This document shows, piece by piece, positions 13,704-62,308 of a DNA stretch of 64,000 nt. Location: contig PUDQ02000035.1 in NCBI GenBank assembly GCA_002964805.2, positions 1 through 64,000 on the forward strand. Reading direction: 5' to 3'. The notes below the pieces were generated by a model. It did no database searches and was not told the origin of the DNA. It worked only from the letters and a program-made list of their open reading frames with translations. This DNA is from Trametes villosa (taxonomy: Eukaryota > Basidiomycota > Agaricomycetes > Polyporales > Polyporaceae). The stretch's first letter is position 1. Every line of letters starts with the position of its first letter. The position numbers and the translations under genes are program-made.

Positions 13704-13976
13704 CCGGGTGGCGCGGATCCGGTTCACCCGGACGCCCGGATAAGCGCGGGTCTGGGTGCAGCCTTGGGATCTGTGGGGATCCGGCTCGGGTTAGGGGTTC
13801 GGGAACCAAAACATGCAGTGTAAAACTGGTCATAACGTAGGCACACGGGTGTCAGACATGAGGAGAAAAAGAGTCTAAGATTGTTAAGCACTTCAAGCAG
13901 GTCTACAAGATGTTTGGACGGAGCGGTAGTACTAGGTCTAGGTACTGTGTCTATGCCACCCTCAGTCTAGTCGGCA

Positions 13977-15164
13977 TCAGTCGCTAAGGTCGCTATCTTC
14001 ATCAGTAGTGTACTCCTCGGGGTCTTCGGACTCAGAGATCGTCACCAGCGAAGGAACCGACTCGTTATCGGAGTCGCGGGCGGGATCCTCCTCGGTGGAG
14101 GACGGCGGTGAGGCCGCGGGCGATGGGGTACCATCCGCGGCATGAGGAGCGCGCGCGCGGCTGTGTTCGCCGCGACGCCGGATGATGGTGCGATCGCGCA
14201 AGCTCGTGGCCCTGTCGACAATGCGCGCTACGGCATGTTAGTCTAGGTTGCACAAATTCATAGTAGAGGTGCTCGCACCTGCGCGCGCGCGCGTCCTTGG
14301 TGCTCGTAGCTTCGCGCGCGGAGCCTGTGGCGAGCTCACTATCGCCGGTGTCAGCATGCCCGCGCGCGCCGATGTCGACGCTCGCGCGAGCCTGAGCGGT
14401 GGGGCGCGCAGTGTTGTCCTCGTTCTGGCCCGGGGCAGTGGGGTGAGGGATGGTTGGCGTGGTGACTGTCAAGTCGCGCCGGGCGTTGTCGAGGGAAAGA
14501 CGGCGCAGCGCGCGCATCACCGCATTCGGAATGGTGAAGGGCGCGATCGGAGTGCCGTGGACCTGTTGAGCGGTGTTGGCGTAGTCCATGCGAAGCTCGG
14601 GACAGTCGTAGATGTCCTAGAACATAGAGATAATGAGCAAATAGACCTTCGTCGAGAGGAAGAGCCGGAAATGCGCTTACCGCGGGCATGTTCACGTGGA
14701 GCCACCCCACGAGCTCCTGGATCTCGTCATCGGCCCCCTCGAGAGGGTGGAGGTCGAGCGCCGCTTGGATCAGACGGTCCGTGAACGCGACGAAGTCGTT
14801 GAGCTTGAGATCGGCGTGGTGCGTGGCGAACGCGCGGTACGTGAGGGCGATGTCCATCAGCGCCTCGAATTGCTCTTCGGAGGCCTCGCACTGGCTCCGC
14901 AGAGGCCCGTGGAAGAGCGATATCCAAGCGTTGACGTGCTCGAGACGGAGGTCTTGAAGGTCGTCCGTCGGAAGCAGGACCTGTGATGCAATCAGCGCGA
15001 TCGTACACCGAGTCAATCGCAACACTTGCCGTGAGCGCATACGTCGGCCCATAGACGAGGAGAGTGATCGCGGGCATCAGTTCGTCCTGCAACAGGTAGC
15101 GGGAGACGCGCGACGTGTCGACCATGAGGTGGATGTCGGCGCCATCGAACGAAATGTTCATCAT
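13977..15164 (-). CDS. Unknown protein with acidic Ser-rich tail, multi-exon
   Basis: I do not recognise this gene. A TATA box lies at 15248-15255 (- strand TATATAGA), 84 bp upstream of the ATG (15164). Well supported exons: second exon 14980-14681, third 14616-14279, fourth 14211-13977; introns 14680-14617 (64 bp, GTAAGC...CTAG) and 14278-14212 (67 bp) keep frame. The first intron (between about 15056 and 14981) has a good acceptor (CATCACAG) but no donor that is both canonical and in frame, so the N-terminal join is uncertain. The N-terminal half reads as a folded helical domain (LRLEHVNAWISLFHG, EEQFEALMDIALTYRAFA). The C-terminus is disordered, acidic and serine-rich, ending TTDEDSDLSD. 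No zinc cluster or signal peptide is visible. About 400 aa are expected. Confidence 0.6.
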
Positions 15165-15247
15165 GGTGGAACGCGTGCGGATGCTGACTGTGGAGGGCGG
15201 GAGATTGGCCGGTCACGGTTGCAGGAGCTCGGGGTGAATCCTACCCG

Positions 15248-15255
15248 TCTATATA
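15248..15255 (-). promoter_or_regulatory. TATA box of the 13977-15164 gene
   Basis: - strand TATATAGA, 84 bp before the ATG at 15164; spacing is normal for fungal genes. Confidence 0.55.
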
Positions 15256-15259
15256 GCGC

Positions 15260-16310
15260 GTACACCGGTGAAGGCCCTCGAACCGCCAGGTGTGCGTGCG
15301 CGAGGGCGCCGGGTGTGCGTGTGCGAGGGCACCGCGAGTCGCGGTCCAGTCAGTGTAGTGGGGCTTGCGCAATCTGGCCGGTGTTGGAGAAACAGGTCCT
15401 CGTGTTCTGTTATCGGCCCAATCCGTACTCGCCGTGCTGTCGTGCGCGCCCTCAGCGGATGGTCGTCGGGATGCGGGCGAGGGCTCACCGGCCTTGAGGC
15501 GGGTGCGTGGCTTTGTGCGGACTCGCAGAAAGAACATCAGAGGCCCAGTCGACTAGCCAGACTAGGCAGTACAGTAGTATCGATGAGAGCTCGCAGGCGG
15601 CGCACCGCCGTCGCGCGGCGCAGTCCGCACGACGACGCAGTTCAGCAAGAGCAAACGCGACGCCGTATGAGCGCCCCTCTGGGGGTCTGTGCGTGGGGAG
15701 CGTATACGAGTATGGTGTGTGGGAGTACCGGATGTAGTTGAACCACGCGCGGCGCAGGCGCACGTCCAGCTACCGGCTCACGCTCTCTGCCACGTCTCCA
15801 CCCTCCTCCTCCTCCCCCATCGATACGCTATCCCTGGTACGGTTGTGTCTCTCCGTTGTGCCCAGGCCACACTGATAACTGACAAAACTCGTCCAGGACG
15901 AGCCTTAGGTCCCTCGTGTGCTACAGCCTCGGCTTTCTGATCGCCCTCCCCGCTGCTCCTGTCCTCCGCGCGGCGACGTCGAAGCCACCGCCGCATGCAC
16001 ACCTCCAAGAGGCCCTCGACGGACCCCGGTCGCCCGGTGAGCCTCGTCGGATTTTTTTTGGCCGCTACCTGGTTGGCTGATCCTGCCTATCTAGACCACC
16101 GCCTCGATGGGCGTGCTGCTCGCCTTGCGGCTGCTCATGCTTACTGTACGTGCTCTGGAGCTCCTCGGCACCATGTGCACCAGCTGAACGTGCATGGTGA
16201 GCTGCCTCAATCGCCATCTGGCCTCAGTATGTTGACTAATTGTTCATTCCAGCGTTGACAATCACGGGGCGTCCACAGAGGCCAAGTCCCTCGGCTGGCA
16301 CGCCCCGCTC
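15260..16310. other. Divergent intergenic region between the acidic gene and hAT transposase
   Basis: About 1 kb separating two genes that point away from each other. No open frame looks coding; frames overlap on both strands and are arginine-rich. A run of eight T lies near 16051. No inverted repeat suggesting a hAT terminus was found here, which argues against a small stand-alone hAT element starting in this interval. Confidence 0.4.
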
Positions 16311-16315
16311 TATCA

Positions 16316-16322
16316 TATAAAG
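16316..16322 (+). promoter_or_regulatory. TATA box of the hAT transposase gene
   Basis: TATAAAG, 109 bp upstream of the ATG at 16431. Confidence 0.6.
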
Positions 16323-16430
16323 GTGCGGCTCGTGCGCCGCTCCTCCTCAGAGTGATACTCGGTCACTGCTCTGTCGCCCCCACGCCCCTCGCCCTGACCT
16401 GTCACCTCCAGCTCCAACCTCTCTGCACCG

Positions 16431-19400
16431 ATGTCCGACGCGCCCCCGCCCAAGCGTTCTCGTGATGCCGACTCCGGCCCTCTTCGAGCGACCGTCAGCG
16501 GACGTGCTCCGCGCCAGTCCGACGTCCGCAGTCCGCCGAAGAAACATCTCAAGGACGCTTCTGCCACCGATGCGACGTCTCCGTCAGCCAGCGGGCGCGA
16601 CGAGAGCCCCCCTCGCTCTCCGACTGCTCGCTCCGACGTCGCGGTCCCTCCTCCCGCCTCCCAGCGCACCGCAGATGCAGACGCTAGCGACGAGGGTGCC
16701 GACGCGACAGATGGCGGCGTCGCGGCCGTCGCAGCGCGCGCGTCTCGTGCTCGTCGCACGGTCCTCTCCGCGGTGACGAAGCGAGAGCGGTTTCAAGAGC
16801 GCTACCGTGGCATGAAGCCCGAAGACGTTCTCGGTAAGCTCTCCTCGACGCTCGCGAGACCGCGATCTTACGCGATCTGCAGCTGTCGTTTCCAAAGGGT
16901 GGAGGTCCAGTGTTTATAAACACTTCCACCCTCCGACCATCGTCGCCGGCCCGCAAGGAAGCTCTGTGTACCGCTTCGTGTGCAAGAAGTAAGTCGGTTC
17001 ATCTTGTATGAGCGAACAGGTTGCTGACCGGCAGCACGCTCTTGCCATAGACATCCCTCCAGGCACGTGGACCGTACCGACTACGAGGACTCGACCGGTA
17101 ACCTCAAACGCCACGTCGACGGCTGTGAACCGGACGACACCCCGGAGGCCGAGCTCCTCACGGCTTACGCCAGCGGTGTCAAGTACTCGCCGGCTCGTCT
17201 TCGCGTCCTCCTGGCCCTTTGGTGTGCGCGCCGCCACTGCCCGTACGCCATCGTGGAGGATCCGGAGTTCGCGCAGATCCTCCGCATGTTGTACGGCAAG
17301 GTCAAGCTGCCATCGCGCAAGACGGTGTCCCGCGATGTGCGCGCGATCTTCAAACACGCGCAGACCAACCTCAAGACACTTCTGGCGGTTAGTAACTACT
17401 CGTGCTATCTCGTCGTCTGCACTCGTAAGCTGACAGCTTTGCAGAGTCTTCCTGGGAAGATCCACATTTGCGTGGATGGCTGGACATCTCCGAACGTCTT
17501 GGCCTTTCTAGGAGTCACCGCCCACTGGCACGATCAGGGGGAAATCCAACATGTGATCCTCGACTTCGTGAGGTCAGTCCAACCCGTCGCATCGATCATG
17601 CACCGGAGTACTGATCTAATCTTGTACAGGTTGACGAAAGCTCACACAGGCGCGTACCTCGCGGAGGCCTTAGTCGAATGTCTCCAAGAATACGGGATCA
17701 CTGACAAGGTGCGCCCGCACTACTTATAACACTGATCCGTTCCGTCGCTCACGCCGGTGCGGCACTTTGCAGGTCCACGTTCTCACTTGCGACAATGCTG
17801 AGAACAACATGGTCATGCTCAAGCGCATGATGGATCTCATGCCGGGGTATCGAGGAACAGCCCTGCGCGTTAGGTGCTTCGGTCACGTATTGAACCTTGT
17901 AGTGAAGGTTCGTATACTCTCTATATTGCTCTTCATGCAGTACACTGACAGGCGGCGGCTCTGTAGGCGATCTTATCTCAGTTTGGGCGTCGCAGGCGTG
18001 CCTCGGACGAGGAGTCCGAAGATGCGGGCGCCGGAAGCGACGACCTTCCGCAGGCCGTGGCAGACCTGAACGATGGCGACGTCGATGACGAGGAGGTCCA
18101 AGCCGAGCAGGAGGCCGATGAAGACCGCGAAGCGGCAGATCGGGAGCTCCTCGACAACCTCGACGAGGAGCTCCCCGAGCTCGTCCTGACCCGCGACGAG
18201 ATCACCGCGGGACAGCTGGCGCTCGAGAAAGTGAGTTTCTGTGCGCCGTTCTGCGTAGAGCAGTGTGCTTATGATGCTTCCATAGATCATGAAGCTCTCG
18301 CGCAAGGTCTGGAACAGTCCGACTGTTCGCGCGGAGCTCGCGAAGCTCGCGGCGGAGGCCGGCTTGAACAGCTCCGTCCTCGTGCGCTCTGTGAAGACAC
18401 GGTGGAATACGGTCACGGAGGTTATACAGCGGGCCCTCGAGATGCGCCCGGTGCTCACGGAACTGTGCGACAAGGCACAGTTCAACAAGAAGGGAGGTGT
18501 CCGCCTCCGCCGCTTCATCATTGCGGACGAGGAATGGACCCTCTTGGACCATCTGTCGGAGCTTCTTGACGTGAGTCGGCCGTTCTACTGTGCTAGTATC
18601 CTGATGATGCTGATGACATGTTCCTCGCAGCCATTCCTTTTCGCCACAAACCAGATCTCCACCAGCTCTCGTGCCCTCGTCCACGAGATCATCCCCTACA
18701 TCGACGTCTTGACGCGCCACGTCGACGAATTCGCGAACAACGACAAGCTGGAGCCGTGCGTGCGCGCCGCCGCCAAGCGCGGCCGCGCGATTCTGGATAA
18801 ATACTATCAGCTTACTGACGAATCGATCGTGTATCGCATTGCTATGAGTAAGTGCATCCTTGTAGCTATGATACATTGTTTGTGCTGATGTGCTCGATCC
18901 CTATAGTCCTCCACCCGGCATACAAGACTGAGTACTTCGTCAAACAGGAATGGCCGAAAGAGTGGATTGATGAGGCCCTCGACATCGTCAAGACGGAGTG
19001 GCGTGAGTGCTACAAGCCCGAGGCCCCGCCCGCCTCCGAGCCGGCTGCCGCACGCCGCGCGGACAGCGACACCGCCGGTACGTGTTGCTGCGCACCGTGT
19101 ATAGATGACCACTGACAGGATCGCATATACACACAGACAGCGCCTCGTCCAGCGGAGTGCCGCGTCCGCGCCCGGTGAACAAAGGAAAACAGCGCGCGGA
19201 CGCTGGCCAGTCCTCCGGCACGGGGCCTGGACGCCTCAGTGTGCAGGCCGCGTCGACGCGCGTGCGTATATTCTCCTCGCGCCTGTGGTATTCATGATGT
19301 ACTGACGGTTCGAACAGGGCAAGAACACGCGCGAGCTGTTCTCGTCCATCGCGAAGAAGAACAAGTCCGCCGCCGACGCGCTACAGACATACCTCGAGAC

Positions 19401-19829
19401 ACCGCCACTCACGACCGTCGAGGATCCCCTCAAGTATTGGGACCTTATTCTGAAGAACACCAGCCCCCTTGCGCTGTCCGAGCGCGCGCTCGCGCAGATG
19501 GCCCTCGACTATCTTTCGGCTCCCGGTATGTATCTCGTTATATTGCTAATGTAACCGACTCTAACGTGGCTGTCTTAGGGTCCTCCACCGATGCGGAGCG
19601 CGCCTTCTCGCGCGGCCATCTCACGGTCTTGCGGCTGCGTCACTCCCTGAGTGACGAGTCTGTTCGCTCGGGAACAGTCGTCGGATCGTGGGCGCGTATC
19701 CCCGATGTCGTCGACGAGGACGCCCTGGAGGGTGTTCTTGGCAAGCCCCACGCCGGACGGAAGCGAGCGAGCGAGCGCGCGGCGCCGCAGGGCGGAGAGG
19801 GGGAAGAGGAGGTCATAGAACTCGAGTAG
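16431..19829 (+). CDS. hAT-family transposase, 13 exons, intact
   Basis: DDE-type transposase of the hAT superfamily. Exons 16431-16833, 16883-16988, 17051-17387, 17445-17572, 17630-17708, 17773-17907, 17967-18230, 18286-18570, 18631-18847, 18907-19077, 19119-19261, 19318-19525 and 19579-19829 join to 908 aa with every junction in frame. A disordered N-terminus (1-130) is followed by a BED-like finger (C168, H191, C195 in YRFVCKK...NLKRHVDGC). The catalytic residues are D293 (CVDGWTS), D358 (TCDNAENN) and E832 (STDAERAFSRG). An acidic insert (about residues 410-460) and the dimerisation block (LSAPGSSTDAERAFS) are present. The many introns suit a basidiomycete hAT. Since nothing is broken, it may be active and is the best candidate mobilising enzyme of the large insertion. 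Confidence 0.9.
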
Positions 19830-20700
19830 TACGCGCGGTATCCTCAACACGTCACCGCCGCGCGGTGACGCGAAGAATTCGACTCTGATTTGTATGTCTG
19901 TTACCCCGCGGCTCCCCCACTGCCTCTACCTTCGCGCGCAATGTGCGCGAAGCCGTGCGCGCGATGCGCGAAGCCGTGCGCGCGATGCGCGAGGGCATGC
20001 GAGCTGCTGACCTTGCATCAATCCTCAGGCTGGTTAGACCCCCGCTCCGTGCTCGTTGCCTCCTGCTTCGTCGCCCCTCATGTATCAAGACGCTCCACGC
20101 TCGTTGTGTCTGCGCTCGCGGGGATGATGCACCTGCAGTTGCCCCGGCTTTGACTCCTGCCACTTGTGACCCTTCTGCGCCCGGCAGCTGGCTTCCTACC
20201 GTCCGCGCGCTCGCTCAGCCGTCCGCGCGCACACAGTACACATTGACAGCATCGCGCACGCGCGCGCGCGAGCCGCTGGCAGACCATACGCACGACGACT
20301 ATGTGCGCGCACGACTGCGAGTGTTCACCTGTGGCCTTGTGCGCAGTCTTTCTTTCAGGTACACTCGTTGTCGGCCCGTAGTCTGATACGGTTGCGCGCG
20401 CTCATAGTCACACCCGGAGGCGCCGTGGAGGTACATTCCCCGTTCTGTTGCACCCTCGCGCACGCCACGCGGTGGTGTATTCTGCCCAAACGGGTGGTGT
20501 TGATGTTCGGTACCTATGGGCGCTAATTTGAGCGCAGTGGTCTTCCTTTGCCTCCCCCTCCTGTATGGCAGGTCGGATATCGCTCAAAACTGTCCATACA
20601 TGTAGCATAGACATATAAGTGTACCCGGTATGAAAAATGCGCGAATATAACCGTTGGTTACTGCTGTGTAGACGTCAAAGAGTCAGTACTGCCTAAAATG
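19830..20700. other. Intergenic after hAT, with a 21-bp tandem repeat
   Basis: No gene is supported. A 21-bp GC-rich unit (core GCGCGAAGCCGTGCGCGCGA) is repeated twice plus a partial copy at 19945-19993. The remaining open frames are low-complexity. Confidence 0.5.
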
Positions 20701-20760
20701 CCACTGCCCCCGCTGCCCCCAACGACCCCCCGGCAAGCGCCGATATATAGGCGCCCGTAG
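20701..20760 (+). promoter_or_regulatory. Promoter block shared with the CxC5/CxC6 gene, copy 1
   Basis: Order of sub-blocks: CTGCCCCC twice, CGACCCCCC, GCAAGCGCC, then TATATAG (20744-20750) and GGCGCCCG. The same sub-blocks in the same order occur on the - strand at 40003-40066, upstream of the CxC5/CxC6 gene. The TATA lies 169 bp before the ATG at 20919. Identity over about 60 bp with small gaps is far above what base composition would give. Confidence 0.7.
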
Positions 20761-20918
20761 GACGACAGCGGTGCAAGCGGGCCGGTCCCATGCCAGGTGC
20801 CTCCTCCTCCCTACCGAGTAGAACCCTGTAGCTCGTCAATGTCATGTTCGTTTGTGATCATAAACACACTGTCTGCCCGCTTGCCCTCCTACCACACTCT
20901 GTGTAGTACCCCACCCCC

Positions 20919-22956
20919 ATGGACAACACGACCATGCCCACACCGCCCTCGACACAAGTCCCGGGTCCGCCTCAGCCACCCCGGCAATACGAGTTCATCC
21001 CTGCGCCCAACTCCACGCCATTGGCGGGCGGAGCAACTGCCTCACAAAACAGGACCTGTAAGGCACCGGGATGTCGGTCTGCGCAGAAGCCCGCCGGCGG
21101 CTGCGCCCATCAGCGGTGTAAGAAGCACTGTCTTGACCTACCCACGCCGTGCAGCTTCAAAGCCCACGATCAGGAGCGGAAACTCCTTGCGAATCCTCCC
21201 CCAGCACCGCCGACAGACATGTTCAGTCTGTCACGGCCTGAACCGCACTCCAGCATGGCCATGCCGCCCTCCGAGGATACCGAACGCCTTCATCGCACCG
21301 TCATGCCTGAGGCGATGAAAGCTGACTGGGACACGGGTATGCAGAAGCGTGTGCTGAAGAGTCAGGCGGAGGCGGAACGGCGAGAGAACCTGGTGATGGT
21401 TGGACGAACATTCTTTCTGGATGCCTGGACAACGGTACGGTTCTCAGCTTGATATCGCATAGAATAGGCTAACATCGCCCCAGGATGGCCATGCCGTCAC
21501 TGAGACCCAGATTCAAGGCACATCAACGTGGCCGACCATCGAGCTTGCGAAACTAACCGAAGCCATGCAAGATCTCGGTCTGCAGAACGAACAAGCCGTT
21601 CAGCGTTACAACCTGGCTACGCGCTCCTGGGTCACGATGCAGCTCAGCCACAAGATCATCGTACACCCCAAGGAGCATGTGCTGATCAGGCGCATAGGAG
21701 TCAAACACTGCCCGGATATCGACGATATATGCGCTCGTATCACCGGGCTTCGCGGACGCATGAAAGGGTTAGGTGATCCGCAGCGCGTAGGCAAGAAACT
21801 CACCCCGTTGTTGCCACCTCCGTCTCTCCCTATGCCGGTCCAGATGCCGCTGTTCTCCCCTACGCCAGGCATGCCCGTTCACCTACCATACGTCACTCCG
21901 TTCCACCCCTTCCCGTACCCTACTGGCGGTGCATTCTGCCCACCGCCCGGCCCCGGGTGGCCCGTCCATGCCCAGCCCCCAAACGCGCCGCCGCTCGGGT
22001 GGCCCGTCCCCGCCCAGCCTCTGAACCCACCCAGCCCAGCAGCAGTACCGCATGCTGACTCGATGATGTCCATCCTTGAATCAGCTACCTCAAGCATGTC
22101 CTTGGATGCTGACGACTTCGGCTCGTCTCGCTTAGAGCCGTCTCACTCAGGTCTATCGTCTCACTCGGGGCTGTCATCTGACTCGGGGCTATCGTCTCAC
22201 CTGGGGCTTAGGTCATCTGACTCGGGGCTATCAGCTATGTCAACAACTTCTGACAGCGCCCTGGCAGGTGGCTTGACTGCTGGTACGATTGGGCCGGCAC
22301 GCACCCTGCCCCCCGGGGCGCCTCAGGCTTCGCCTCTGCCAACCCAGTGGCCCGCACAGTCGCTCCCTCCTAGTACCCAGACGACGAGCATAGGCATGTT
22401 CCCCGCCCCGTTCTACACACATGTCTACCCCGTACAGCCGCCCAACCAAACACCCAGTCAATCGGTCACAACTGGGCGATTGCGGCGCCCCGTCCTACCC
22501 TCACTCGCCATCAAGGATCTCGATCAGCTGTGGGATCTGAAGCTTGTCTACGCCCCACCAACCAAGCGAGCGTGGCCTGCTGCCTTCTACGCTCGCGATG
22601 TGGCCCGTGCATTCGCATTCATTGGGGATGAGAGCATGGACGTCGGGGACGCCAACACAGACGAGAAGTCTTCGCTCCGCCAGCGGTTCGAGTACGTATT
22701 CGGACGTCCATTCAAATCCTCAACCTATCAACGTGCACGTCGCACCTGGGTCAACTCTCCACAACTTCAGCGCGATCGGATTCTCAATCTTCCACGCACG
22801 AAGAAGAACGTGTGGACGGCGGTGCGTAAGGAACTTGCTGGTTCAGCTCGGGAGCGCAGCCACAAACGCGGGCAGGGAAAACACGCAGCAGAGGATGAAG
22901 GTGAGGAGGAAGGCGAGGGCGAGGATGGATATGAAGAAGGAGACGATTCGGAGTAG
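20919..22956 (+). CDS. Cysteine-cluster protein, 662 aa, function unknown
   Basis: Two exons, 20919-21434 and 21484-22956, joined in frame; the 49-bp intron is GTACGG...CCCCAG with a CTAAC branch. I do not recognise the gene beyond its Cys/His cluster (C47, C52, C62, C67, H70, C71, C78, H83), which resembles zinc-binding CxC modules seen with fungal KDZ transposases and has a relative in the next gene. After it comes a helical region (about 130-250), a long Pro-rich stretch, a short Ser/Gly/Leu repeat (SGLSSHSGLSSDSGLSS, about 22141-22235), then a compact C-terminal domain (about 505-625, YARDVARAFAFIGD, RFEYVFGRPF, STYQRARRTW) and an acidic tail. The C-terminal domain could bind DNA, but that is a guess. 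Nothing is broken. Confidence 0.75.
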
Positions 22957-23157
22957 ACGGCTTCTCGGAGTAGACGGCTTCACTTGTTTTGTTACTGGTT
23001 CCTATTGCACCTCACGGTGTTTTCTGATATGTGCACCCTCTTCTCTCTGCAATTGGCCTGGTGTCTCGCCCAACTAGGGTGAGTGCTATACGTTCCAGAC
23101 GCCCTCTCGATTGTCACCCAACGGCTTCGGTGACGGCATGCGAGGGCTCTGCTGCTT

Positions 23158-23165
23158 TATATAAA
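23158..23165 (+). promoter_or_regulatory. TATA box of the UIM/SUMO-motif gene
   Basis: TATATAAA, 132 bp upstream of the ATG at 23297, followed by a pyrimidine-rich leader. Confidence 0.65.
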
Positions 23166-23296
23166 CCCGCAAGGTGAACGTCGACGCCATTCCATTCCTT
23201 CCTCCTTCCCTCCATCTGCGCCTCTGCGATCCCTCCTCTCGTCTATCCACCTGCTCCCGTCACTTCCGCCTCTATTACCCACAGCCACCCGACATC

Positions 23297-30784: not shown

Positions 30785-33700
30785 CGAGACGTCCACTCGT
30801 CACGCGTACCTCCGCGACCGCGGGTGGACGTCGAGGGGGAGGAGGAAGGGGCGATGGCCGAGACGCATCCCAACAGGAAACTCCCGGGGCATCTGCCTTA
30901 TGTAGTAGAGGAGATTATTAGTGAGAAAACCGCCAAAAAAGAGAAATCGGACGCAGCATGGAGCACCACTCCACAGCCGCCCGATAGCGAGACGGGTACA
31001 GCCCCGACCGGAACGGCAGAGCCGACCGGCGCGACTCAAGAACCACGCCCAAGCAAGGCGACGGAACCGATCGGTGGGCACCAGGATTCGCTCAAGGCAG
31101 CTCGGACAGTCGAGTTCGTATTTCCGGCGGACCCAGAGGCCCCGCGGCGGTACAAACACAAGTTTTGGCCTGATCCTCGTAACCCGAGTGACATGCCCGA
31201 AATTGCTGACCGAGAGCGCGTGGGTCTCCATTCATCTCAAGGGGTGAAGCGTGACAAATACGGCCACGTCGACCGGTATGGCATGAACGAAGTACTTCAA
31301 ACCGAAGCACTGGCATACCTACGTGAATTGCCCGAACGGGAGACGATGGTGCCACCACGATCGGACCGCATCCCCGCACTACGGGAGAGATGGTTCCAGC
31401 AGTGTGAGGACTTACTCGGCCCTATACCGCTGGAATTGCCCCCGATGCGGGAAATCAATCACAAAATACCGCTCATAGACGAAGCAAAACGGTACAATTA
31501 TCACCATCCCCGGTGTCCGGACGCGGTTCGCGACGAACTAAGGGAGAAGATGGGCCGCTACATCAAGGCCGGATGGTGGGAGATGAAGCCGGCTAATCAA
31601 GCCGCTCCTCTACTATGCATCCTCAAGAAGAGCGGCAAGTTACGTACCGTAGTCGACGCCAGGCAAAGGAATGAGAACACACATAAAGACGTGACGCCAT
31701 TCCCTGACCAGGACAACATCCGGCAGGACGTGGCGCGCGCGAAGTACCGCTCGAAGATCGATATGTCCGACGCGTATGAACAAATACGTATCGAAGTCGA
31801 AGACGTCTGGAAGACGGCGTTCTCTACAATATTCGGCACGGCGGTCTCCCGAGTCATGCAGCAGGGAGACTGCAATGCACCGAGTACGTTTCAACGTCTA
31901 ATGACGTGGATATTCCGCGACTTCATTGGAGTGTTCGTACACGTGTATCTCGACGACATATTTGTGTTTTCGCGTACGATCGAGGAACATGAAGAACACC
32001 TCAAACTCGTATTCGACAGGCTTCGGGAACAGCGCTTGTATCTCAGCCGGGCAAAGCTTGACCTATACTCCGAACGGATGGACTGCTTAGGGCACATGAT
32101 TGACGATCATGGACTCCATGCGGACACGGACAAGATGTCTGTCATTCGAGACTGGCGGACCCCGCGATCCCAGCTGGAAGTACAGCGGTTCCTGGGGCTC
32201 GTGCAGTATCTCGCTCACTTCTTGCCCGACGTCTCGGCGTATACCTCGCCTTTGGAGACCATCTGTCGAAACGGCGCCGCGTTCCACTGGAGGCCAATCC
32301 ACCAAGCTTGCCTAGACCACATAAAGGCACTAGCCTGCAAGGCTCCGGTGCTCAAACCTATCGACCCAAACTCTCCCGACCCGGTGTGGGTGATCACGGA
32401 TGGGTCGATGGTCGGTGTCGGGGCAGTCTACGGTCAAGGTCCCGACTGGCGCAGTTGTCGACCCGCGGGATTTATGTCGAAGAAGTTCACCGCCGCGCAG
32501 CGATCGTATCCCACCTACGAACAAGAAGCGCTTGGTATCCTAGAGGCACTCATGAAGTGGGAGGACCGGCTCATGGGCCGGCCCATCCGCATCGCCACCG
32601 ACCACAAGTCGCTCACGACGTGGAAGACGGTCATGAGGGATACTCGCACCAACCGCCTAATACGTTGGGACGATTACATGTCACGATTCGACTTTGATAT
32701 CGAGCATGTCGAAGGGGCAGAGAACAAAGTTGCGGACTGCCTCTCCCGGTATTACGAGAACGACAAGCCCGATGAACTCCAACCGTCGCATGTCTACGTG
32801 AATGCCGACGTGCGCCTGAACCCGGAGATGGACGAGCTCACCAAAACCCGTCGCGAAGAACTGGAGGAGCAGCTGTCATTACACGCTCTCCGCGAGGTTA
32901 CCGAGGACCGCACCCGAGAAGCGGACGCTCTCCAGGCCACGGCTGAGAGGCGCGACGGCACTGATGAAGACGACACACCAAGTGTCACGTTAAGAGAGGC
33001 ATTCCAAGATGGGGCCCCTCTCGACGGGGTAGTGGGTAGCATAGCGGGGTACTGGGATATGGTCAAAACGGCTTATCCCAGCGACCCTACGTTCGGAAAG
33101 GTGGTGGCCAACGTGAAAGCGTACCCCACCTTCGCCATTAAGAACGGACTGCTCACGGTACGCACTAGACTGGGATTCGACTGCGTATGCATTCCGAACG
33201 GGAAACTGGGATCGAGATCGTTAGTCGAACTAGCCATTGACCACGCGCACAAGACCCTTGGGCATTTAGGGGTCCAAAAGACCTCTGAATATTTGAGACG
33301 CTGGTTCTGGTGGCCGCGATTTCACAAGGACGTCGAACGATTCTGCACATCCTGCGGGGTGTGCCAGACCACGAAGTCCAGCAACGCGCCGCCGGCAGGA
33401 CTACTACACACGATGCCTATCCCGCTCTACCCTTGGCAGTCTATGGGGATGGACTATGTCGGTCCCTTCCCTGAATCCGCGGGATTCAACTACCTACTCG
33501 TCGTCATCTGCCGCCTGACAAGCATGGTTCATCTGATACCTTGCCGGGTAACAGATACAGCTGCCACCATCGCATCGTACTATATCAGGGACGTCGTACG
33601 TCTTCACGGGTTGCCCGAGTCCATCGTTTCAGACCGTGATTCAAAATTTACGTCGGCGTTCTGGCGAGAGGTACATTGGGTATTGGGCACGAAATTGCTC

Positions 33701-34555
33701 ATGTCAACCGCATTCCACCCTCAAACCGATGGTGCATCCGAACGCGCTATTCGCAATGTCGCCCAGATACTACGTGCCGTGGTGACTCCCGATCAAACCG
33801 ATTGGGTTGACCGCGTGCCCATGGTTGAGTTCGCACTTAACTCAAGCACGAGTGCGACGACGGGCTACGCACCGTTCGAACTCAACTACGGACATATGCC
33901 ACGCATGGCGCGGTTCGAATCCACACCGTCACCGTACCCGGGAGTACACGCGTTCGCGGACAGAGCTCGCATCAATCTGGAGCACGCGCACGACGCCATC
34001 CTCCAAGCTCGCATCCGGCAAACCCATAACGCTAACCAACATCGCACGGATGAAGCCACTCCGTATGAAGTAGGCGACCTGGTCTACCTCTCCACGAAGA
34101 ATCTTCAGCTCCCTAAGAACCGAGCGCGCAAGCTCGCTCCCAAATTTATTGGGCCATACCGAGTATCGCGCGCGAACGCGGCTACGTCGACGTTCACGTT
34201 GGATCTACCGGAGGAACTAGTGAAACGGAAGTTACACCCTACGTTCCACAGTTCGCTACTACGACCTCATGAACCCAACGACGATACCGCGTTCCCGGGC
34301 CGCGAAGCCAACAAGTTCTATGACTTCGGCACCCCGGACGAGCAGGAGTGGATGGTAGACGAGATATCGGGGCATCGCTGGAAGGGGAGGAAAATCGAAT
34401 TCCTTGTACATTGGACACTCGGTGACCATACATGGGAACCACTGTCTAACTGTGACGAGCTGCGCGCGCTCGACGACTACCTCACCCTCATGGGGGTGCA
34501 GTCGTGGAGAGCCCTGCCGCGCAAGGAACGGACCGGCCGCACACGCGACGCTTGA
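30782..34555 (+). CDS. Gypsy Pol: RT, RNase H, integrase, chromodomain
   Basis: Open from the codon after TGA to 34555 (about 1257 codons; the first GTG is at 30824). RT begins near residue 250 (KAGWWEMKPANQAAPLLCILKK) with SKIDMSDAYEQIRIE and active site YLDDIFVFS. RNase H shows VWVITDGSMVGVGAVYGQ, YPTYEQEALGILEAL and ATDHKSLTTW. Integrase has the HHCC finger (HKTLGHLG...CTSCGVC) and D-D-E (MDYVGPF, SDRDSKFTSAFW, DGASERAIR). The C-terminus ends with a chromodomain (EWMVDEISGHRWKGRKIEF, LVHWTLGDHTWEPLSN), which directs chromoviruses to heterochromatin. All catalytic residues are present. The long N-terminal extension (about 200 aa) is low-complexity. Confidence 0.93.
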   Translation, partial: RRDVHSSRVPPRPRVDVEGEEEGAMAETHPNRKLPGHLPYVVEEIISEKTAKKEKSDAAWSTTPQPPDSETGTAPTGTAEPTGATQEPRPSKATEPIGGHQDSLKAARTVEFVFPADPEAPRRYKHKFWPDPRNPSDMPEIADRERVGLHSSQGVKRDKYGHVDRYGMNEVLQTEALAYLRELPERETMVPPRSDRIPALRERWFQQCEDLLGPIPLELPPMREINHKIPLIDEAKRYNYHHPRCPDAVRDELREKMGRYIKAGWWEMKPANQAAPLLCILKKSGKLRTVVDARQRNENTHKDVTPFPDQDNIRQDVARAKYRSKIDMSDAYEQIRIEVEDVWKTAFSTIFGTAVSRVMQQGDCNAPSTFQRLMTWIFRDFIGVFVHVYLDDIFVFSRTIEEHEEHLKLVFDRLREQRLYLSRAKLDLYSERMDCLGHMIDDHGLHADTDKMSVIRDWRTPRSQLEVQRFLGLVQYLAHFLPDVSAYTSPLETICRNGAAFHWRPIHQACLDHIKALACKAPVLKPIDPNSPDPVWVITDGSMVGVGAVYGQGPDWRSCRPAGFMSKKFTAAQRSYPTYEQEALGILEALMKWEDRLMGRPIRIATDHKSLTTWKTVMRDTRTNRLIRWDDYMSRFDFDIEHVEGAENKVADCLSRYYENDKPDELQPSHVYVNADVRLNPEMDELTKTRREELEEQLSLHALREVTEDRTREADALQATAERRDGTDEDDTPSVTLREAFQDGAPLDGVVGSIAGYWDMVKTAYPSDPTFGKVVANVKAYPTFAIKNGLLTVRTRLGFDCVCIPNGKLGSRSLVELAIDHAHKTLGHLGVQKTSEYLRRWFWWPRFHKDVERFCTSCGVCQTTKSSNAPPAGLLHTMPIPLYPWQSMGMDYVGPFPESAGFNYLLVVICRLTSMVHLIPCRVTDTAATIASYYIRDVVRLHGLPESIVSDRDSKFTSAFWREVHWVLGTKLLMSTAFHPQTDGASERAIRNVAQILRAVVTPDQTDWVDRVPMVEFALNSSTSATTGYAPFELNYGHMPRMARFESTPSPYPGVHAFADRARINLEHAHDAILQARIRQTHNANQHRTDEATPYEVGDLVYLSTKNLQLPKNRARKLAPKFIGPYRVSRANAATSTFTLDLPEELVKRKLHPTFHSSLLRPHEPNDDTAFPGREANKFYDFGTPDEQEWMVDEISGHRWKGRKIEFLVHWTLGDHTWEPLSNCDELRALDDYLTLMGVQSWRALPRKERTGRTRDA

Positions 34556-34726
34556 CGCGTCGCGAGTTGGCGCCCACGATCACGGGACCGTGTTGGCGCC
34601 GAAGTGGCTGAGCTGTACAGTTCGAGCGGCGGAGTTCGAACTTAGACGCTTAGCCAGGTCGCGCTTCCGAGGACTCGGGTCCAAGTACCCTTCTCAATAC
34701 TCGCGTGCGAACACCACTCGCTAGAA
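34556..34726 (+). other. Spacer between Pol and the extra ORF
   Basis: 171 bases in the same frame register but closed by a second stop (TAG at about 34643). No TATA box or intron signals were recognised. How the downstream ORF is translated (separate mRNA, splicing, reinitiation) is open. Confidence 0.5.
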
Positions 34727-37297
34727 ATGGACCGCCGATCCTCAACCAACGCGCCCTCCGACCACCACTACGCGTCTCCGGACCGACGCAGCGACGGATG
34801 GCAGTCGCCACCGAACGCGCGGCAACACCGCGCGGACGGGAACGTGTACGACGCGTCCAGGGGGGGAGGGTATACGGGACCGTCGTCTAGTATGGGCAAC
34901 ACCCAGTACTATTCGTCGGCCCCGATGGGACCGTTTAACGGCCCGGGACCTGTATACCCAGGCCCGGGTTCGGCGGGGCCCTATCAGCAATACAACGACT
35001 ACGACGCACCGCCGCCGCCACCGCGAGACGACACCATTGCTGCCATAGTGCGGCTATCCTCGGAGAATGGCGCCCTGAGCCAGCGCCTCTCAGACAGTCG
35101 GCTGGAACTCGCGAACAGCCAGCACGCCCAACAGCAGCTGAAGCGCGACCTCGCGGATGCTCGTGGTCAGATCACACGACTGCAGGAGGACAATCGGGTG
35201 CTCAAGAACGAGATCGAGCGGCTCAAACGGGAGTTAACGCAAGACGAAGCAGGACGCCCTCACAAGCGACGGGACAATCGAGACGATCGACCACCGTCTC
35301 CATCCCGAAGCGACCGCGGACGACAAGAGGACCGGTTCGACCGCCGTGATTACGGTCACGGCGGGTCGCACTACTCTCCGCGTAGGCGCGAGCGATCCCC
35401 TCCACCTCGCAATCGGTCTCCCCTTCGGCACGGTCAAGTACGGGGCGGTGCCCCGCCACCCCGGCCACCGCTGCAAGAGCGCATTCGCGAACCCTCGCCG
35501 GCGGCACCACCGCTACACGAGAGGATCCAGAAGATCGCTCCCCGACCGCTGAAAGAGCGCATAGAGGCGCCCGCGACCAAGTCCACGCGCGCGACTGAGG
35601 AACCCCGCACCACGACGAGCGATCGCGCACAGGCGGACCGGCGAGCACCAAAGAAGCCCGTCAACAAGGACGTCACGATGGCAGAGGCCACACCGCCCCC
35701 TGTGCCCGCCATGCCCACACAGCAGTCGACGCCGCAAGTGGCCTTCGTGCTCCCCGTTACACGCGGGATGACGAACGACGAGGTCGAGGCCGCGGCGAAC
35801 CAACCCGACGAGCAACTAGAAGCATCGGGCCAGCCACAATCGCCGTGGTACGTGCGATGGAAGAGTCGCTTGTCCACCGCGGAGGAATACGAGGACATCG
35901 ACATGGACGCACCGTCGGACAGTGACGAGGACGAGGAGGGCGAAACCATCCCGAACGAGCCGCACTCGCCGTTCCCTGACCCGCTCGCCCTCCGCATCAA
36001 GGACCTCTTACCCGACGGCGAGGCTAATGAGGTCTATCGTCTCTCTAGAGTGCAGGGGAAAGCCTCGTCTTCCGTCAAGGCCGGAGCCACCGGGGCCATC
36101 GAGGAGTTCCGTAAAACGACTTCTACCCTGGGCAAGTGGGCGCAGACTACGATCGCCAGCGTTGTCCAAGCGCATAACCTGCGCTGGATGGCGGTGGTTG
36201 AGTTCGACGCGCGTGCCATGGCGTACTACAAGGCGATCATCCGGTTGTACAACCACCCCACCATTCGGCGATCCGCGGGTGCCCGGTATCTACTCCAGGT
36301 TTACCCCAAGGACGTGGTGGACATGAACCGTGGATTCCGACTCGACATGCCCGCCACGCGACCCCGTCTCGCTACTGGGGCGTTCCCGCCTCAGCACGCC
36401 GGAGTAAAAGAGGTCGTCGCCTACTACCGCAACGTGCCGACATCACACTGGGGCATGGGCATGCGAAAGGCAGACGGCACACTGCCGGAGGTCAATGGGA
36501 CCACGTTCGGGGTCCCTCACCAAAAGGATGCCTTCGCGGCGTTCGTCCTGAAGCACGCGGTCACGGTCCCTCATGGTGTACGGCGCCCCGATCTCAAGTC
36601 GCACCCCGCTCAAGTGAAGGCGGGGCTGGTTACTCTGTTCTCTGTGGACGGGATGTACGAGGCCATCGTCGAGAAGGGCGGGTACAAGGCGGTAAAGCCC
36701 GCTTGGCCCGCCCCTTACTTCTTCTCCGTGTCGCCGCCCAATGTTGTGTGCATGGCGGCCTGGATGTGCGCCCATGGCATCGGCACGAAGACGGAGTTGA
36801 TCTCTTACCTCCGACGGTGGGCACGCATCGCTCGCAACCGCGGACTACACCGAGTCGACAACGATGCGACGGACTGGCCGGACTTCCCGCGTACCGCGGA
36901 GGACTTCCTGAACTCGCCCGCCGCCGCCGACATCGTCGAATATCGCGCGTTGCCCTGGGGCACACCGGCGTTCGCGAGCGAGGACTTTGCGGTGCCCCCA
37001 AAGCCGGCTCCGAAGTCGTGTACCATCCCCCCACAACGTCAACCGGTGCCCGCCGTTGCGTCCACGAGCTCGACGACCGGTCGACGTCATCACTCACCAC
37101 CTCGTGGTGTCGATATCGTGCGGCCCGCTACATCGTCGCCTCGGATCGCGAAGCAAGCCGCGCCTAGCTCGATCAACACTGGGGGCGGTCGTGAGGACGA
37201 GGAACTCGTCGATTACGATGACGAATTCGGATCGTCTCTACCCGTCGTCGGACAGGCTCTATTCGGCGACACCGAAGAGGAGCCCCCGTCGGCTTAG
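34727..37297 (+). CDS. Additional 3' ORF of the Gypsy element, 856 aa, not envelope-like
   Basis: Sense-orientation ORF in the position where envelope genes lie in retroviruses. It has no signal peptide and no hydrophobic segment long enough for a membrane anchor, so it is not an envelope. Seen in order: Gly/Pro/Tyr-rich N-terminus (1-100), a strong coiled coil (about 105-170, NGALSQRLSDSRLELANSQH), an Arg/Ser/Asp-rich part with RRRERSPPPRNRSP (about 175-250), PPLxERI repeats (LQERIREP, LHERIQK, LKERIEA), an acidic stretch, and a globular C-terminal region (about 450-760; TLGKWAQTTIASVVQAHNLRW, YYKAIIRLYNHPTIRRSAGA). It ends acidic. Intact over 2.6 kb in a very young copy, so likely needed by the element. 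An RNA-binding or second nucleocapsid role is a guess. Confidence 0.8.
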   Translation: MDRRSSTNAPSDHHYASPDRRSDGWQSPPNARQHRADGNVYDASRGGGYTGPSSSMGNTQYYSSAPMGPFNGPGPVYPGPGSAGPYQQYNDYDAPPPPPRDDTIAAIVRLSSENGALSQRLSDSRLELANSQHAQQQLKRDLADARGQITRLQEDNRVLKNEIERLKRELTQDEAGRPHKRRDNRDDRPPSPSRSDRGRQEDRFDRRDYGHGGSHYSPRRRERSPPPRNRSPLRHGQVRGGAPPPRPPLQERIREPSPAAPPLHERIQKIAPRPLKERIEAPATKSTRATEEPRTTTSDRAQADRRAPKKPVNKDVTMAEATPPPVPAMPTQQSTPQVAFVLPVTRGMTNDEVEAAANQPDEQLEASGQPQSPWYVRWKSRLSTAEEYEDIDMDAPSDSDEDEEGETIPNEPHSPFPDPLALRIKDLLPDGEANEVYRLSRVQGKASSSVKAGATGAIEEFRKTTSTLGKWAQTTIASVVQAHNLRWMAVVEFDARAMAYYKAIIRLYNHPTIRRSAGARYLLQVYPKDVVDMNRGFRLDMPATRPRLATGAFPPQHAGVKEVVAYYRNVPTSHWGMGMRKADGTLPEVNGTTFGVPHQKDAFAAFVLKHAVTVPHGVRRPDLKSHPAQVKAGLVTLFSVDGMYEAIVEKGGYKAVKPAWPAPYFFSVSPPNVVCMAAWMCAHGIGTKTELISYLRRWARIARNRGLHRVDNDATDWPDFPRTAEDFLNSPAAADIVEYRALPWGTPAFASEDFAVPPKPAPKSCTIPPQRQPVPAVASTSSTTGRRHHSPPRGVDIVRPATSSPRIAKQAAPSSINTGGGREDEELVDYDDEFGSSLPVVGQALFGDTEEEPPSA

Positions 37298-37307
37298 ACC
37301 GTGTACT

Positions 37308-37325
37308 CGGTCTAGAGGGGGAGGG
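37308..37325 (+). promoter_or_regulatory. Polypurine tract of Gypsy
   Basis: AGAGGGGGAGGG directly before the TGTAAC start of the right LTR, the expected plus-strand primer. Confidence 0.85.
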
Positions 37326-37523
37326 TGTAACGCGGGGACGGTTGGGTCACGTGCGTTACGCAATAGGCGCCCGCGTGCGCGGTGGCTGGTACTGTACAGT
37401 AGCACGGTTGACCGCGCCCGACAGGCGTTCGTTGTACTCATCGCTTAACTACACACTGGACTAATCTACTGCTTGAATCAGTTCTATCCTGGTGTGCTCT
37501 AGGCGACATCTGTCACTGTTACA
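37326..37523 (+). repeat. Gypsy 3' LTR
   Basis: 198 bp, identical by eye to 27375-27572, TGTAAC...GTTACA. Confidence 0.95.
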
Positions 37524-37528
37524 GCGAT
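37524..37528. repeat. Target-site duplication of Gypsy, right copy (GCGAT)
   Basis: Matches 27370-27374 exactly. Confidence 0.95.
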
Positions 37529-37615
37529 GGAGCTGTGTGCGAGCGGGAGCAGGTCATACGGGAGGATCGGCACTGCATCCACGTCCCCCGGGAGCGTCAG
37601 GTATCTGGGCATTAG
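37529..37615 (+). pseudogene. 3' part of the small gene broken by Gypsy
   Basis: In-frame continuation of exon 2 (26922-27374) once Gypsy and one GCGAT are removed: 28 codons (GAVCEREQVIREDRHCI...) then TAG at 37613-37615. An alternative intron donor (GTATCT at about 37601) would change the last residues. Confidence 0.5.
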
Positions 37616-37813
37616 TTCTGACAGTGAGCGTATTGTGCCATTCCGTTCCCCATACCTACACTCTATACAATGTCCCGCACTCCTTTGTATCATGTACTAT
37701 GCAGGGCGTTCCTGCCTAGCCAATTGACTCCTGTGAGAAAACCGGTCAAGGGTGACAGCGCCATTCATTGCCATCGGTGTTCGGGGTGAATGGCATCATA
37801 CATAATAACACAT
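37616..37813. other. Short convergent intergenic region
   Basis: About 200 bases between the broken small gene and the end of the CxC5/CxC6 gene. Probably 3' untranslated sequence of both. No other feature seen. Confidence 0.4.
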
Positions 37814-39948
37814 CTACTGTGATACATCCTCTCGCGCAAAACGTAAGTCACGGCGGTAACTAGGAATACATCCGTCCGCCTCGAGCTTCGCCCGAGTAAG
37901 CCGATTCTTCTGCAAGATCATCTCGTCCAAGAAAAACTCGTACTTCGCGGCGCCCATCTCCCGTACAATGGCATGATAACCTCCAAACCACACATTAGTT
38001 TGCTCAGCCCGAGATGAATTGAAAAACCAGCCTTGCTCGTCCGTGAGCAGCTCCGGGAACATGTAGGGATTGCAGTGGAAGGAGCATTCGACGTCGGTCT
38101 TCTTATGCTTACACTTCCAGTGGAAGACGTCGACGGGCAAGCCGATCTTGACGTGGAGGTCCTCGCCCGGCTGTGCAGCACAGAACTTGTAGACACCGCA
38201 GTTGTTATCGTGCCAGATGTACGACGGCATCGAGTTTGGTATGAGGTGTTTCTTCTTCATCATGTCCTGGAGCGTATATCAGAACATGCTCGACAGCGCA
38301 AATGATACAGATCGTACGACAACTTGCGGAATGCTCTCCGAGCCGTAGAATGTCTCCCGTGCCGTGATGATTCCGCAGGGGCGTACAAAGAGTTGCTCGT
38401 TGTGCGTACGCCGCCGGCCAAATCGCGCGTGCACGCGGTGATTGCCCTCGCCGCTCTTCTCCGGGCACGGTCCCGGAAGCTCTGTTTCGATGTCCTCGTC
38501 GATCGGCGCGAGAGGGTCGACAGCATCCGTCGGGTGTGCGACTTGGGCACGCTGAAGGCGGGCACGGAGGGTGAACATGGCCTTGCCTGTCGCCGCATAG
38601 TGCTCTTTGACCGCGGCATGGAGCGCGCATGTACGGCAACCAAGGCGATGAGGAACACGGCATCCGTCCACAACGCAGAGCAGCTCCATCCGCTTGTGTA
38701 GGGAACACCACCGCTCCTGCGTTGATCGAAGATCCCTCGTGCAGTTGTGGACGCCGCAACATGGGCGCCCGATGTTGATACTGTCGGTGATGACACAGTC
38801 GACGTAGCCTGAAATGGTGTCAGCAAACGGCTGCGCATCACCAAGGTCACTCACGTGTCGTTCCGTCCGCGTCGTCAAAGCGACGCACGCACTTGGTGCA
38901 CCAATGTGCGTACTCAGGCTGCCCTGAGCGCCGAATGCGATCCGTGCGCGCGCGCATAGCCTTCGTGAAACGATCCTTCTGGTGCCCTGTGTGCGGCACC
39001 TCCAGAACGCCGCCGTGGTCCTTCACATCACGAAGGAGTGCCAGAATAATGAAGCCGTCCCAAGTGTGCGGCGCATGGAGACGGAAGCGGGAGTCTTCAG
39101 GGAGAGTACCGTTGACATGGGCCATAGACTGGTGATAGATGTGTGCAGCGTTTGTCGCCGAGGTCCAGGAGAGCACAGACAGGGCGGTGAAGTGTTCCAG
39201 TACAGCAAGCTCAATGTACTTCTCGGCAGAGACCTGAACATAGCCAGGGATGTCGGGGTAATACTGCCTGATGTCCTGGCGTACAACGTAGTTTGGGTAG
39301 TAGATTGCCTCGCATTCTGCGATCCGATGAGGAGCTCAGGCTGCTGTACTGACAAGCCGTAAAGAGTACATACTGGTGCATGTGAGGTGAACAGCGTGCG
39401 CGTCGTAGGCACCGCGCGTCATGGTGAAAACTTGGACAGGCCGGGGAGGAGCGTAAAGCCGAAGTAGTTGACCGTACCTAGCACAGGCAGGATCGGTACA
39501 GACCCGTGTTTCTGGGTACAGCATATGGTTCGCTGAGCATCAATTCTCATCAGTATCGATAGTGCCTGCCACCGGACGCGTTAAACATACATAAGAACGC
39601 GTCCATGACCTCCGTATCCCACTCATCCGTGGACCCGCCTTCGTCTCCCTCCCAATCGCCTAGGATGGAGGTCCCGGACTCCCAGATGGCGCACCCTAGG
39701 ACGGTCCACATCTGCTGACAGCATTCCTGCGAGGTCCCTAGGCGACAGCTGATGAACTCAAGAATGTACGGAGGTAGGTCTGCGGGCGTGTCCTTCGGGC
39801 TCCAGCCAGCCGGTGAACGGTGTAGCATCACAGGCTGAAGCCGTGCAGCCAGACGGATAAACCTAACCAGAGTACCCAGAGTGGAATTGAGTGCTTGAGG
39901 CGCGCGAGATAACGCGTATACAAGAGATGCGAGGGGAACCATGACCAT
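37814..39948 (-). CDS. CxC5/CxC6 cysteine-cluster protein associated with KDZ transposases, 640 aa
   Basis: Exons 39948-39591, 39532-39374, 39316-38855, 38808-38318 and 38266-37814 join to exactly 640 aa; introns of 46 to 58 bp are GT...AG. After a helical N-terminus (to about 120) comes a CxC5-like module (CTDPACARYGQLLRLY, then HLTCTKCEAIYYPNYVV), a domain with VLSWTSATNAAHIYH, then a CxC6-like module (RPCCGVHNC, RWCSLHKRMELLC, DGCRVPHRLGCRTCALH). The C-terminal half has SYIWHDNNC, DVFHWKCKHKKTD, NSSRAEQTNVWFGGYHAIVREM and FFLDEM. Its H/C and E-rich layout recalls the KDZ transposase core, so it may be a degenerate or specialised KDZ relative; the first KDZ aspartate (DGNF-type) is not evident. 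Such proteins are strongly expanded in Agaricomycetes. Here it accompanies a hAT transposase. Confidence 0.85.
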
Positions 39949-40066
39949 GCGAGAGAAGAGAGAACATGAACCGCCTACACTAAGCTAACCCGACTGGCGC
40001 GGAATGCGGGCGCCTATATTACGGGCGCTTGCGGGGGGGGGTCGTGGGGGCAGTGGGGGCAGCGGC
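39949..40066 (-). promoter_or_regulatory. Promoter block shared with the 20919 gene, copy 2
   Basis: Read on the - strand, 40066-40003 gives CTGCCCCC twice, CGACCCCCCCCC, GCAAGCGCCC, AATATAGG and GCGCCCG, parallel to 20701-20760. The TATA-like box (about 40013-40020) is about 70 bp before the ATG at 39948. Confidence 0.7.
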
Positions 40067-40259
40067 AGTTCCCGCCGTGCGTACGTTCTCGTAGACGTGT
40101 GCCTCTCCTCCTCCTTCGGCCACAGTATTCTGCTCATACCGTCACCACCTCCCGTCGGATCTTTTCGTCCTTTGGAGACGTACTTTGCGTTGGTAATTCG
40201 TACATGCTCACGGAGTTTTAGGTCAAACGAACCAGTTTCTATCTTGCGGATCCATTTCC

Positions 40260-40390
40260 AGGTTACCTATAGGTTCCGGGTCCGGGTCCCCCGGGTCCGG
40301 GTCATCCGGGGTCCGGGTCATGCCCGGGTCTGGGTGGGACCCCCTGAACCGGGCAATACCTACAGGTCCGGGTCCGGATAACCCGTAGGT
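40260..40390. repeat. TCCGGGT-rich right end of the large insertion and right duplication copy
   Basis: TCCGGGT occurs five times between 40270 and 40375, mixed with CCCGGGT. CCTATAGGT and CCTACAGGT precede two of the runs. ACCCGTAGGT (40381-40390) is the right partner of 13694-13703. Dense short subterminal repeats are typical of hAT-type termini, where transposase binds; the precise end base is uncertain. Confidence 0.55.
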
Positions 40391-62278: not shown

Positions 62279-62308
62279 GTATATACGAACTCACCTCGAG
62301 TCTTCGTC

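What the first reader, a model, noticed from the sequence alone, without database searches (positions are those of the whole stretch)
13704..40380. Multi-gene DNA insertion that may be an undescribed large transposon carrying a hAT transposase with CxC cargo
The interval lies cleanly between two halves of a young Copia element. Without its Gypsy insert it is about 16.5 kb and holds six genes with own TATA boxes and introns. Five are unbroken or have no visible defect: a complete hAT transposase, a CxC5/CxC6 protein, two further cysteine-cluster proteins and an acidic unknown. The flanks show ACCCATAGGT / ACCCGTAGGT, whose 8-bp core fits a Buster-like hAT duplication, and both ends are rich in CCGGGT words. 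Ordinary hAT elements are 3 to 5 kb with one gene. Weakness: no clear terminal inverted repeats, and the duplicate-like word resembles motifs inside the right end.
Basis: partly seen in the sequence, partly recalled or inferred. Interest (0 to 1): 0.88.

Follow-up and report, generated by a model that had tools for sequence, protein, structure and literature searches.

The report
Four-deep nest of fungal transposons
A stretch of fungal DNA that looked like one giant jumping gene is four different ones inserted into each other, and the inner DNA element belongs to a little-studied multi-gene family whose CxC5/CxC6 protein is predicted to be the enzyme that moves it, which would likely explain the insertion that makes a commercial oyster mushroom sporeless.

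Summary
The insert in the Copia is real but is not one transposon. Its true ends are 13634 and 40409: an 11-bp inverted repeat flanked by the 8-bp duplication GGCTGCGG. The outer element is a hAT with two genes, a 902-aa transposase and an acidic companion. Three same-ended elements (6.9-7.5 kb) elsewhere in the genome carry both genes and no detected CxC genes. The 'CxC cargo' is a second DNA transposon, 20676-40090, with its own ends and duplication (GTAGACGT). Two separate copies (8.6 and 8.7 kb) have such ends, exact 8-bp duplications and the same kind of genes: Cys-cluster gene A, Cys/UIM/SIM-like gene B (weakly matched) and CxC5/CxC6. A Gypsy (27375-37523) sits inside it. The CxC5/CxC6 protein is predicted to be an RNase H-fold DDE transposase; none of 18 CxC5 loci lies within 10 kb of a KDZ match. 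This revises the Pfam label 'associated with KDZ' and gives a testable explanation for a CxC5/CxC6 insertion in Pleurotus MSH4.

The parts
11401..43700 (-). Layer 1: Copia retrotransposon split by the insert; LTRs 11401-11693 and 43408-43700; duplication TCCCA at 11396-11400 and 43701-43705
13626..13633 (.). Left target-site duplication of the hAT element, GGCTGCGG
40410..40417 (.). Right target-site duplication of the hAT element, GGCTGCGG
13634..40409 (+). Layer 2: hAT-type DNA transposon (7,353 bp once the inner element and one copy of its duplication are not counted)
13634..13644 (+). hAT left terminal inverted repeat TAAGGCTGGCC
40399..40409 (-). hAT right terminal inverted repeat
13977..15164 (-). 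hAT companion gene (predicted 4 exons, one GC-AG intron, 335 aa, acidic tail, no Pfam match)
16431..19829 (+). hAT transposase gene (predicted 13 exons, 902 aa)
20668..20675 (.). Left duplication of the inner element, GTAGACGT
40091..40098 (.). Right duplication of the inner element, GTAGACGT
20676..40090 (-). Layer 3: CxC5/CxC6 DNA transposon (9,261 bp without the Gypsy); strand given is that of its predicted transposase
20696..20757 (+). C5-rich inverted repeat with a TATA-like motif, beside the left end (putative promoter of Cys-cluster gene A)
40007..40070 (-). Partner of that inverted repeat (85%), putative promoter of the CxC5/CxC6 gene
20919..22956 (+). Cys-cluster companion gene A (predicted, at least one intron)
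23297..25109 (+). Companion gene B with three UIM-like and two SIM-like motifs (UIM below the Pfam cut-off; exon structure only partly predicted; match to gene B of other copies covers 36-41 aa)
37814..39948 (-). CxC5/CxC6 gene, predicted DDE transposase (5 exons, 640 aa)
27375..37523 (+). Layer 4: Gypsy retrotransposon, duplication GCGAT at 27370-27374 and 37524-37528
25302..26231 (.). Further repeat matter inside the inner element: 25302-25726 is 86% like C118:5383-5833; 25721-26231 is 65-66% like three other dispersed repeats

Best explanation
The interval is not one transposon but a hAT-type element (13634-40409) holding a second DNA transposon (20676-40090) that holds a Gypsy retrotransposon, all inside a Copia, and each DNA element was likely moved by cut and paste by its own transposase: the hAT protein for the outer one and, as predicted from its fold, the CxC5/CxC6 protein for the inner one. 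Shown here: the four sets of target-site duplications, the empty Copia site, the same-ended copies of both DNA elements, and the gene sets of those copies. Inferred: the order Copia, then hAT, then CxC element, then Gypsy follows from the nesting; cut-and-paste follows from inverted ends and 8-bp duplications. Predicted: the CxC5/CxC6 protein folds as an RNase H-like DDE enzyme with Asp328, Asp507 and Glu576 (numbering of the Lentinus tigrinus relative) as the catalytic triad, and the Pfam CxC6 zinc cluster is an insertion just behind the first aspartate. Untested: companion proteins A and B may help end binding; the UIM- and SIM-like motifs of B suggest recruitment to ubiquitin- or SUMO-marked chromatin or repair sites.
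Against: Foldseek itself gave no PDB match at E 0.001 or better (44 weak ones, best 1.4); the fold rests on the model and on the second-look aligner. No sequence profile links the CxC5/CxC6 protein to a transposase: Pfam finds CxC5 and CxC6 in 46 of 46 relatives and otherwise only sporadic weak hits, none to a transposase family. The window copy has Ser where 46 of 46 relatives have Gly next to the first predicted catalytic Asp, so this copy may be impaired. A genome search with the UIM/SIM part of the window's gene B found only the window; its link to gene B of other copies rests on 36-41 aligned residues (44-47% identity) and on similar motifs. A blind search for inner inverted repeat plus duplication did not pick out the inner ends, because their outermost bases match poorly; they were found through the promoter-like repeat and confirmed with other copies. 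The inner empty site cannot be aligned at base level, as the three sibling hAT elements are too diverged there; length (7,353 bp against 6.9-7.5 kb) and gene content carry that step. The left end of the C1:9014k copy was not found in the stretch read.
Confidence: 0.9

Rival explanations
1. One large hAT transposon that captured CxC genes as cargo.
For: All genes lie between one pair of hAT ends with one 8-bp duplication.
Against: The CxC block has its own ends and duplication; two separate copies carry the same kind of ends and genes; the searches found no CxC genes in three sibling hAT elements.
Confidence: 0.03
2. The inner element is non-autonomous: a KDZ transposase acts in trans and CxC5/CxC6 is only a DNA-binding helper.
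For: Pfam names CxC5 and CxC6 'associated with KDZ transposases'; this genome has many KDZ genes (116 matches); Zisupton makes 8-bp duplications (PMC12730594, passages).
Against: 0 of 18 CxC5 loci lie within 10 kb of a KDZ match, the nearest being about 18 kb away; the Pleurotus authors also found none near theirs (PMC7641404, sections 15-16 read); the protein has its own predicted DDE core with a conserved triad.
Confidence: 0.12
3. The CxC5/CxC6 protein is itself a compact, far-diverged KDZ transposase, so the element is a branch of KDZ and not a new lineage.
For: Both AlphaFold models have a similar order after the second Asp (10-residue helix, 4-residue helix, a helix with Phe-His, a helix with Cys followed by Pro, then the Glu helix; KDZ has one extra strand); shared short motifs DG, YDxxC, FH, E[RQ]; both match integrase cores.
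Against: Profile comparison gives 1.8% probability and aligns another region (1.3% with a single KDZ frame); on the catalytic tails alone the local score 19.4 lies inside 60 shuffled (max 24.4) and reversed (22.5) controls; Pfam KDZ matches 0 of 46. The same test also misses hAT versus KDZ, so it cannot exclude kinship.
Confidence: 0.4
4. Assembly error joined unrelated pieces.
For: The contig is only 69 kb long.
Against: Each of the four layers has exact duplications (5, 8, 8 and 5 bases), and the outer join restores a Copia stretch seen uninterrupted in the four copies read.
Confidence: 0.02

Closest known systems
hAT superfamily, fungal branch (PF05699; Trametes and Ganoderma relatives)
   Different: Carries a second conserved, divergently transcribed gene; 7.3 kb; terminal 150-180 bases far better conserved than silent sites
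KDZ transposons (Kyakuja, Dileera, Zisupton)
   Same: 8-bp duplications reported for Zisupton; RNase H-like core with DG, YDxxC and E motifs
   Different: No profile similarity, no KDZ Pfam match, no long helical C-terminal part, no KDZ match within 10 kb of the CxC5 loci
CxC5/CxC6 'insert' in poMSH4 of sporeless Pleurotus ostreatus (PMC7641404; passages and sections 15-16 read)
   Same: Multi-kilobase unit (6,792 bp) with one CxC5/CxC6 gene, several full copies, a cluster of C5-containing repeats (BC5NWY) like the C5-rich ends here
IS256/ISCth4 and retroviral integrase cores (family name IS256 recalled)
   Different: No detectable sequence similarity; CxC6 zinc cluster inserted behind the first Asp

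Membership tests
hAT superfamily (outer element) | hAT transposase with C-terminal dimerisation domain | tested here: met
   PF05699, 30 bits against cut-off 21.4
hAT superfamily (outer element) | 8-bp target-site duplication | tested here: met
   GGCTGCGG with empty site; also C69 and, with one terminal change, C10; not C32
hAT superfamily (outer element) | Short terminal inverted repeats | tested here: met
   11 of 11 bases
hAT superfamily (outer element) | Transposition activity | not testable with these tools
   needs an excision assay
KDZ (inner element) | KDZ transposase domain PF18758 in the element's transposase | tested here: not met
   0 of 46 relatives match; 0 of 18 CxC5 loci within 10 kb of a KDZ match
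KDZ (inner element) | 8-bp target-site duplication | tested here: met
   3 of 3 copies with both ends read
KDZ (inner element) | Homology of the catalytic core | tested here: inconclusive
   profile score inside controls; similar order of helices and motifs in the two models
DDE cut-and-paste transposons (inner element) | RNase H-like core with conserved D, D, E | tested here: met
   by predicted model and conservation only; Foldseek alone gave no significant match
DDE cut-and-paste transposons (inner element) | Inverted ends and fixed-length duplication | tested here: met
   separate ends, duplications and copies

The most novel reading that the evidence does not exclude
CxC5/CxC6 elements are an undescribed lineage of cut-and-paste DNA transposons of mushroom-forming fungi: a compact DDE transposase whose Pfam CxC6 'cysteine cluster' is a zinc insertion inside the RNase H core, two dedicated companion proteins, one of them reading ubiquitin and SUMO, promoters built into C5-rich inverted ends, and 8-bp duplications. 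They, and not Copia or KDZ, made the sporeless Pleurotus mutation.
Probability: 0.38. Interest if true: 0.75.

Novelty: new variant of a known kind. Interest (0 to 1): 0.55.

Why it matters
CxC5 and CxC6 are annotated in mushroom genomes as clusters 'associated with' KDZ transposases. If the protein is the transposase of its own element, many such genes can be reassigned (18 CxC5 loci here; 44 to nearly 60 regions in Pleurotus according to PMC7641404), a commercially important sporeless mutation gets a likely cause, and the reported link of CxC genes with Copia may be no more than nested insertion. A DNA transposon with a companion protein that carries ubiquitin- and SUMO-binding-like motifs would also be unusual and can be tested. 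The case warns that genes found between one pair of transposon ends need not be cargo.
Full report
Setting. The window is contig C35 (first 64,000 of 69,288 bases) of an unnamed 46.7-Mb genome in 140 contigs. Nearest protein relatives of its transposons are from Polyporales such as Trametes, Lentinus and Ganoderma, so the host is very probably a wood-decay mushroom relative (inference).

Outer boundaries. Four of the Copia places were cut out (C117, C16, C14, C59), and all four run through the site with one GGCTGCGG. In the window GGCTGCGG stands at 13626-13633 and again at 40410-40417, and between them the insert begins TAAGGCTGGCC and ends GGCCAGCCTTA.

The outer element is a hAT with two genes. 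A 13-exon model with GT-AG introns gives a 902-aa protein with the hAT dimerisation domain. Three other elements share both ends in the same arrangement: 6.9, 7.4 and 7.5 kb. They are not recent copies: silent sites are close to saturated (dS about 1.75), yet the protein is 77-80% identical and dN/dS is 0.07-0.09, while the terminal 150-180 bases stay 81-90% alike. A second, divergently transcribed gene encodes a predicted 335-aa protein with an acidic tail and no Pfam match; it is present in all four elements with dN/dS 0.17-0.27, and relatives of it lie within 2.4 kb of a transposase of this lineage at 8 of 9 loci, the exception being C11 (52 kb); in the transposase search only 51 of 142 candidates were scored, so that exception may be a gap of the search. 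Two of the three siblings show an 8-bp duplication, one of them only if a terminal base change is allowed; C32 shows none.

The CxC genes are not cargo of the hAT. Counting the inner block out leaves 7,353 bp, the size of the siblings. The block is bounded by an 85% inverted repeat with TATA-like motifs (20696-20757 and 40007-40070); 20 bases further out on each side the element ends and GTAGACGT stands (20668-20675 and 40091-40098). Independent support comes from relatives: at C1:6032974-6041611 and C105:6379-15076 the same kind of ends (CAAAAAGTCCG... on one side, GAGGTTATCCG... or GAGATCGTCCG... on the other) are flanked by CTCGTTCC twice and CCCGGAGC twice. So 3 of 3 copies with both ends read have exact 8-bp duplications. 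Further right-hand ends of this type are visible at C20, C49 and C1:9014k; their left ends were not read (C20, C49) or not found in the stretch read (C1:9014k).

Gene content of the inner element. C1 and C105 each carry a Cys-cluster gene A, a gene B with a Cys cluster, UIM-like and SIM-like motifs, and CxC5/CxC6; the partial copy at C1:9014k carries B and CxC5/CxC6 near an A relative. The window copy has A and CxC5/CxC6 and a gene with the same motifs as B, but its aligned match to B of the other copies covers only 36-41 residues (44-47% identity), and a genome search with its UIM/SIM part found only itself. Relative to CxC5/CxC6, gene B is on opposite strands in different copies. All seven gene-A loci found outside the window lie within 7 kb of a CxC5 locus; a gene-A relative was found at 8 of the 18 CxC5 loci, the window included. 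The UIM match is below Pfam's cut-off, and the SIM-like words are motif matches of my own. The CxC5/CxC6 gene has a five-exon model of 640 aa and dN/dS of 0.09 and 0.13 in the two of four comparisons where silent sites are not saturated.

Relation to KDZ. Pfam's KDZ profile matches none of 46 relatives. The genome has 116 KDZ matches, but none of 18 CxC5 loci lies within 10 kb of one; the nearest is about 18 kb away (the tool calls its repeat counts lower bounds). Profile comparison finds no similarity, and on the catalytic tails the score lies inside shuffled and reversed controls; the same test also fails to link hAT with KDZ, so it is weak evidence of separation. A KDZ model (pLDDT 79.7) shows a similar order of helices after the second Asp and also matches integrase cores. 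A distant KDZ kinship therefore remains open.

Link to published work. In sporeless Pleurotus ostreatus a 6,792-bp 'insert' with a CxC5/CxC6 gene interrupts poMSH4; the authors found no KDZ transposon within the expected distance, noted C5-containing repeats (BC5NWY) and suspected Copia (PMC7641404; passages and sections 15-16 read). The present element offers a simpler reading: a DNA transposon of this kind, with Copia as a frequent neighbour or nest partner. This was not tested on the Pleurotus sequence. A 2025 survey of TET/JBP-carrying fungal transposons describes hAT, KDZ and Plavaka families with that extra gene (PMC12730594; outline and passages); the term CxC does not occur in its main text.

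Verdict. Four layers with four duplications: Copia (TCCCA), hAT (GGCTGCGG), CxC element (GTAGACGT), Gypsy (GCGAT). The finding's headline falls, but the inner element is worth more than the headline.

Noticed in passing
window 8463-8590: Interstitial telomere-type array (TTAGGG repeats) 8.4 kb from the contig start.
   Followed up: no
window 62994-63527: Tandem-like repeat family with about 41-base spacing near the right end of the window.
   Followed up: no
G000:C1:6032974-6041611 (L060, L063, L053): This CxC element also holds a stretch encoding a Ferritin_2 domain (PF13668, E 3.4e-25), possibly a captured host gene.
   Followed up: partly
L038, L039 (G000:C96:58303-59395 and 61933-63025): Two 1.1-kb stretches 3.6 kb apart bounded by hAT-like ends (right 74%, left 69% like those in the window), probably non-autonomous relatives, with a KDZ match between them.
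   Followed up: partly
window 20696-20757 and 40007-40070: Gene A and the CxC5/CxC6 gene share nearly the same C5-rich, TATA-bearing start region; a similar one (75-76%) precedes the CxC gene at C20 and C49.
   Followed up: partly
window 13634-13801 and 40229-40409: hAT ends are 81-90% conserved between elements whose silent coding sites are close to saturated, a sign of strong constraint or exchange between ends.
   Followed up: partly
window 38780-38785: CxC5/CxC6 gene: Ser codon (38780-38782) in place of a Gly that is invariant in 46 of 46 relatives, next to the first predicted catalytic Asp.
   Followed up: no
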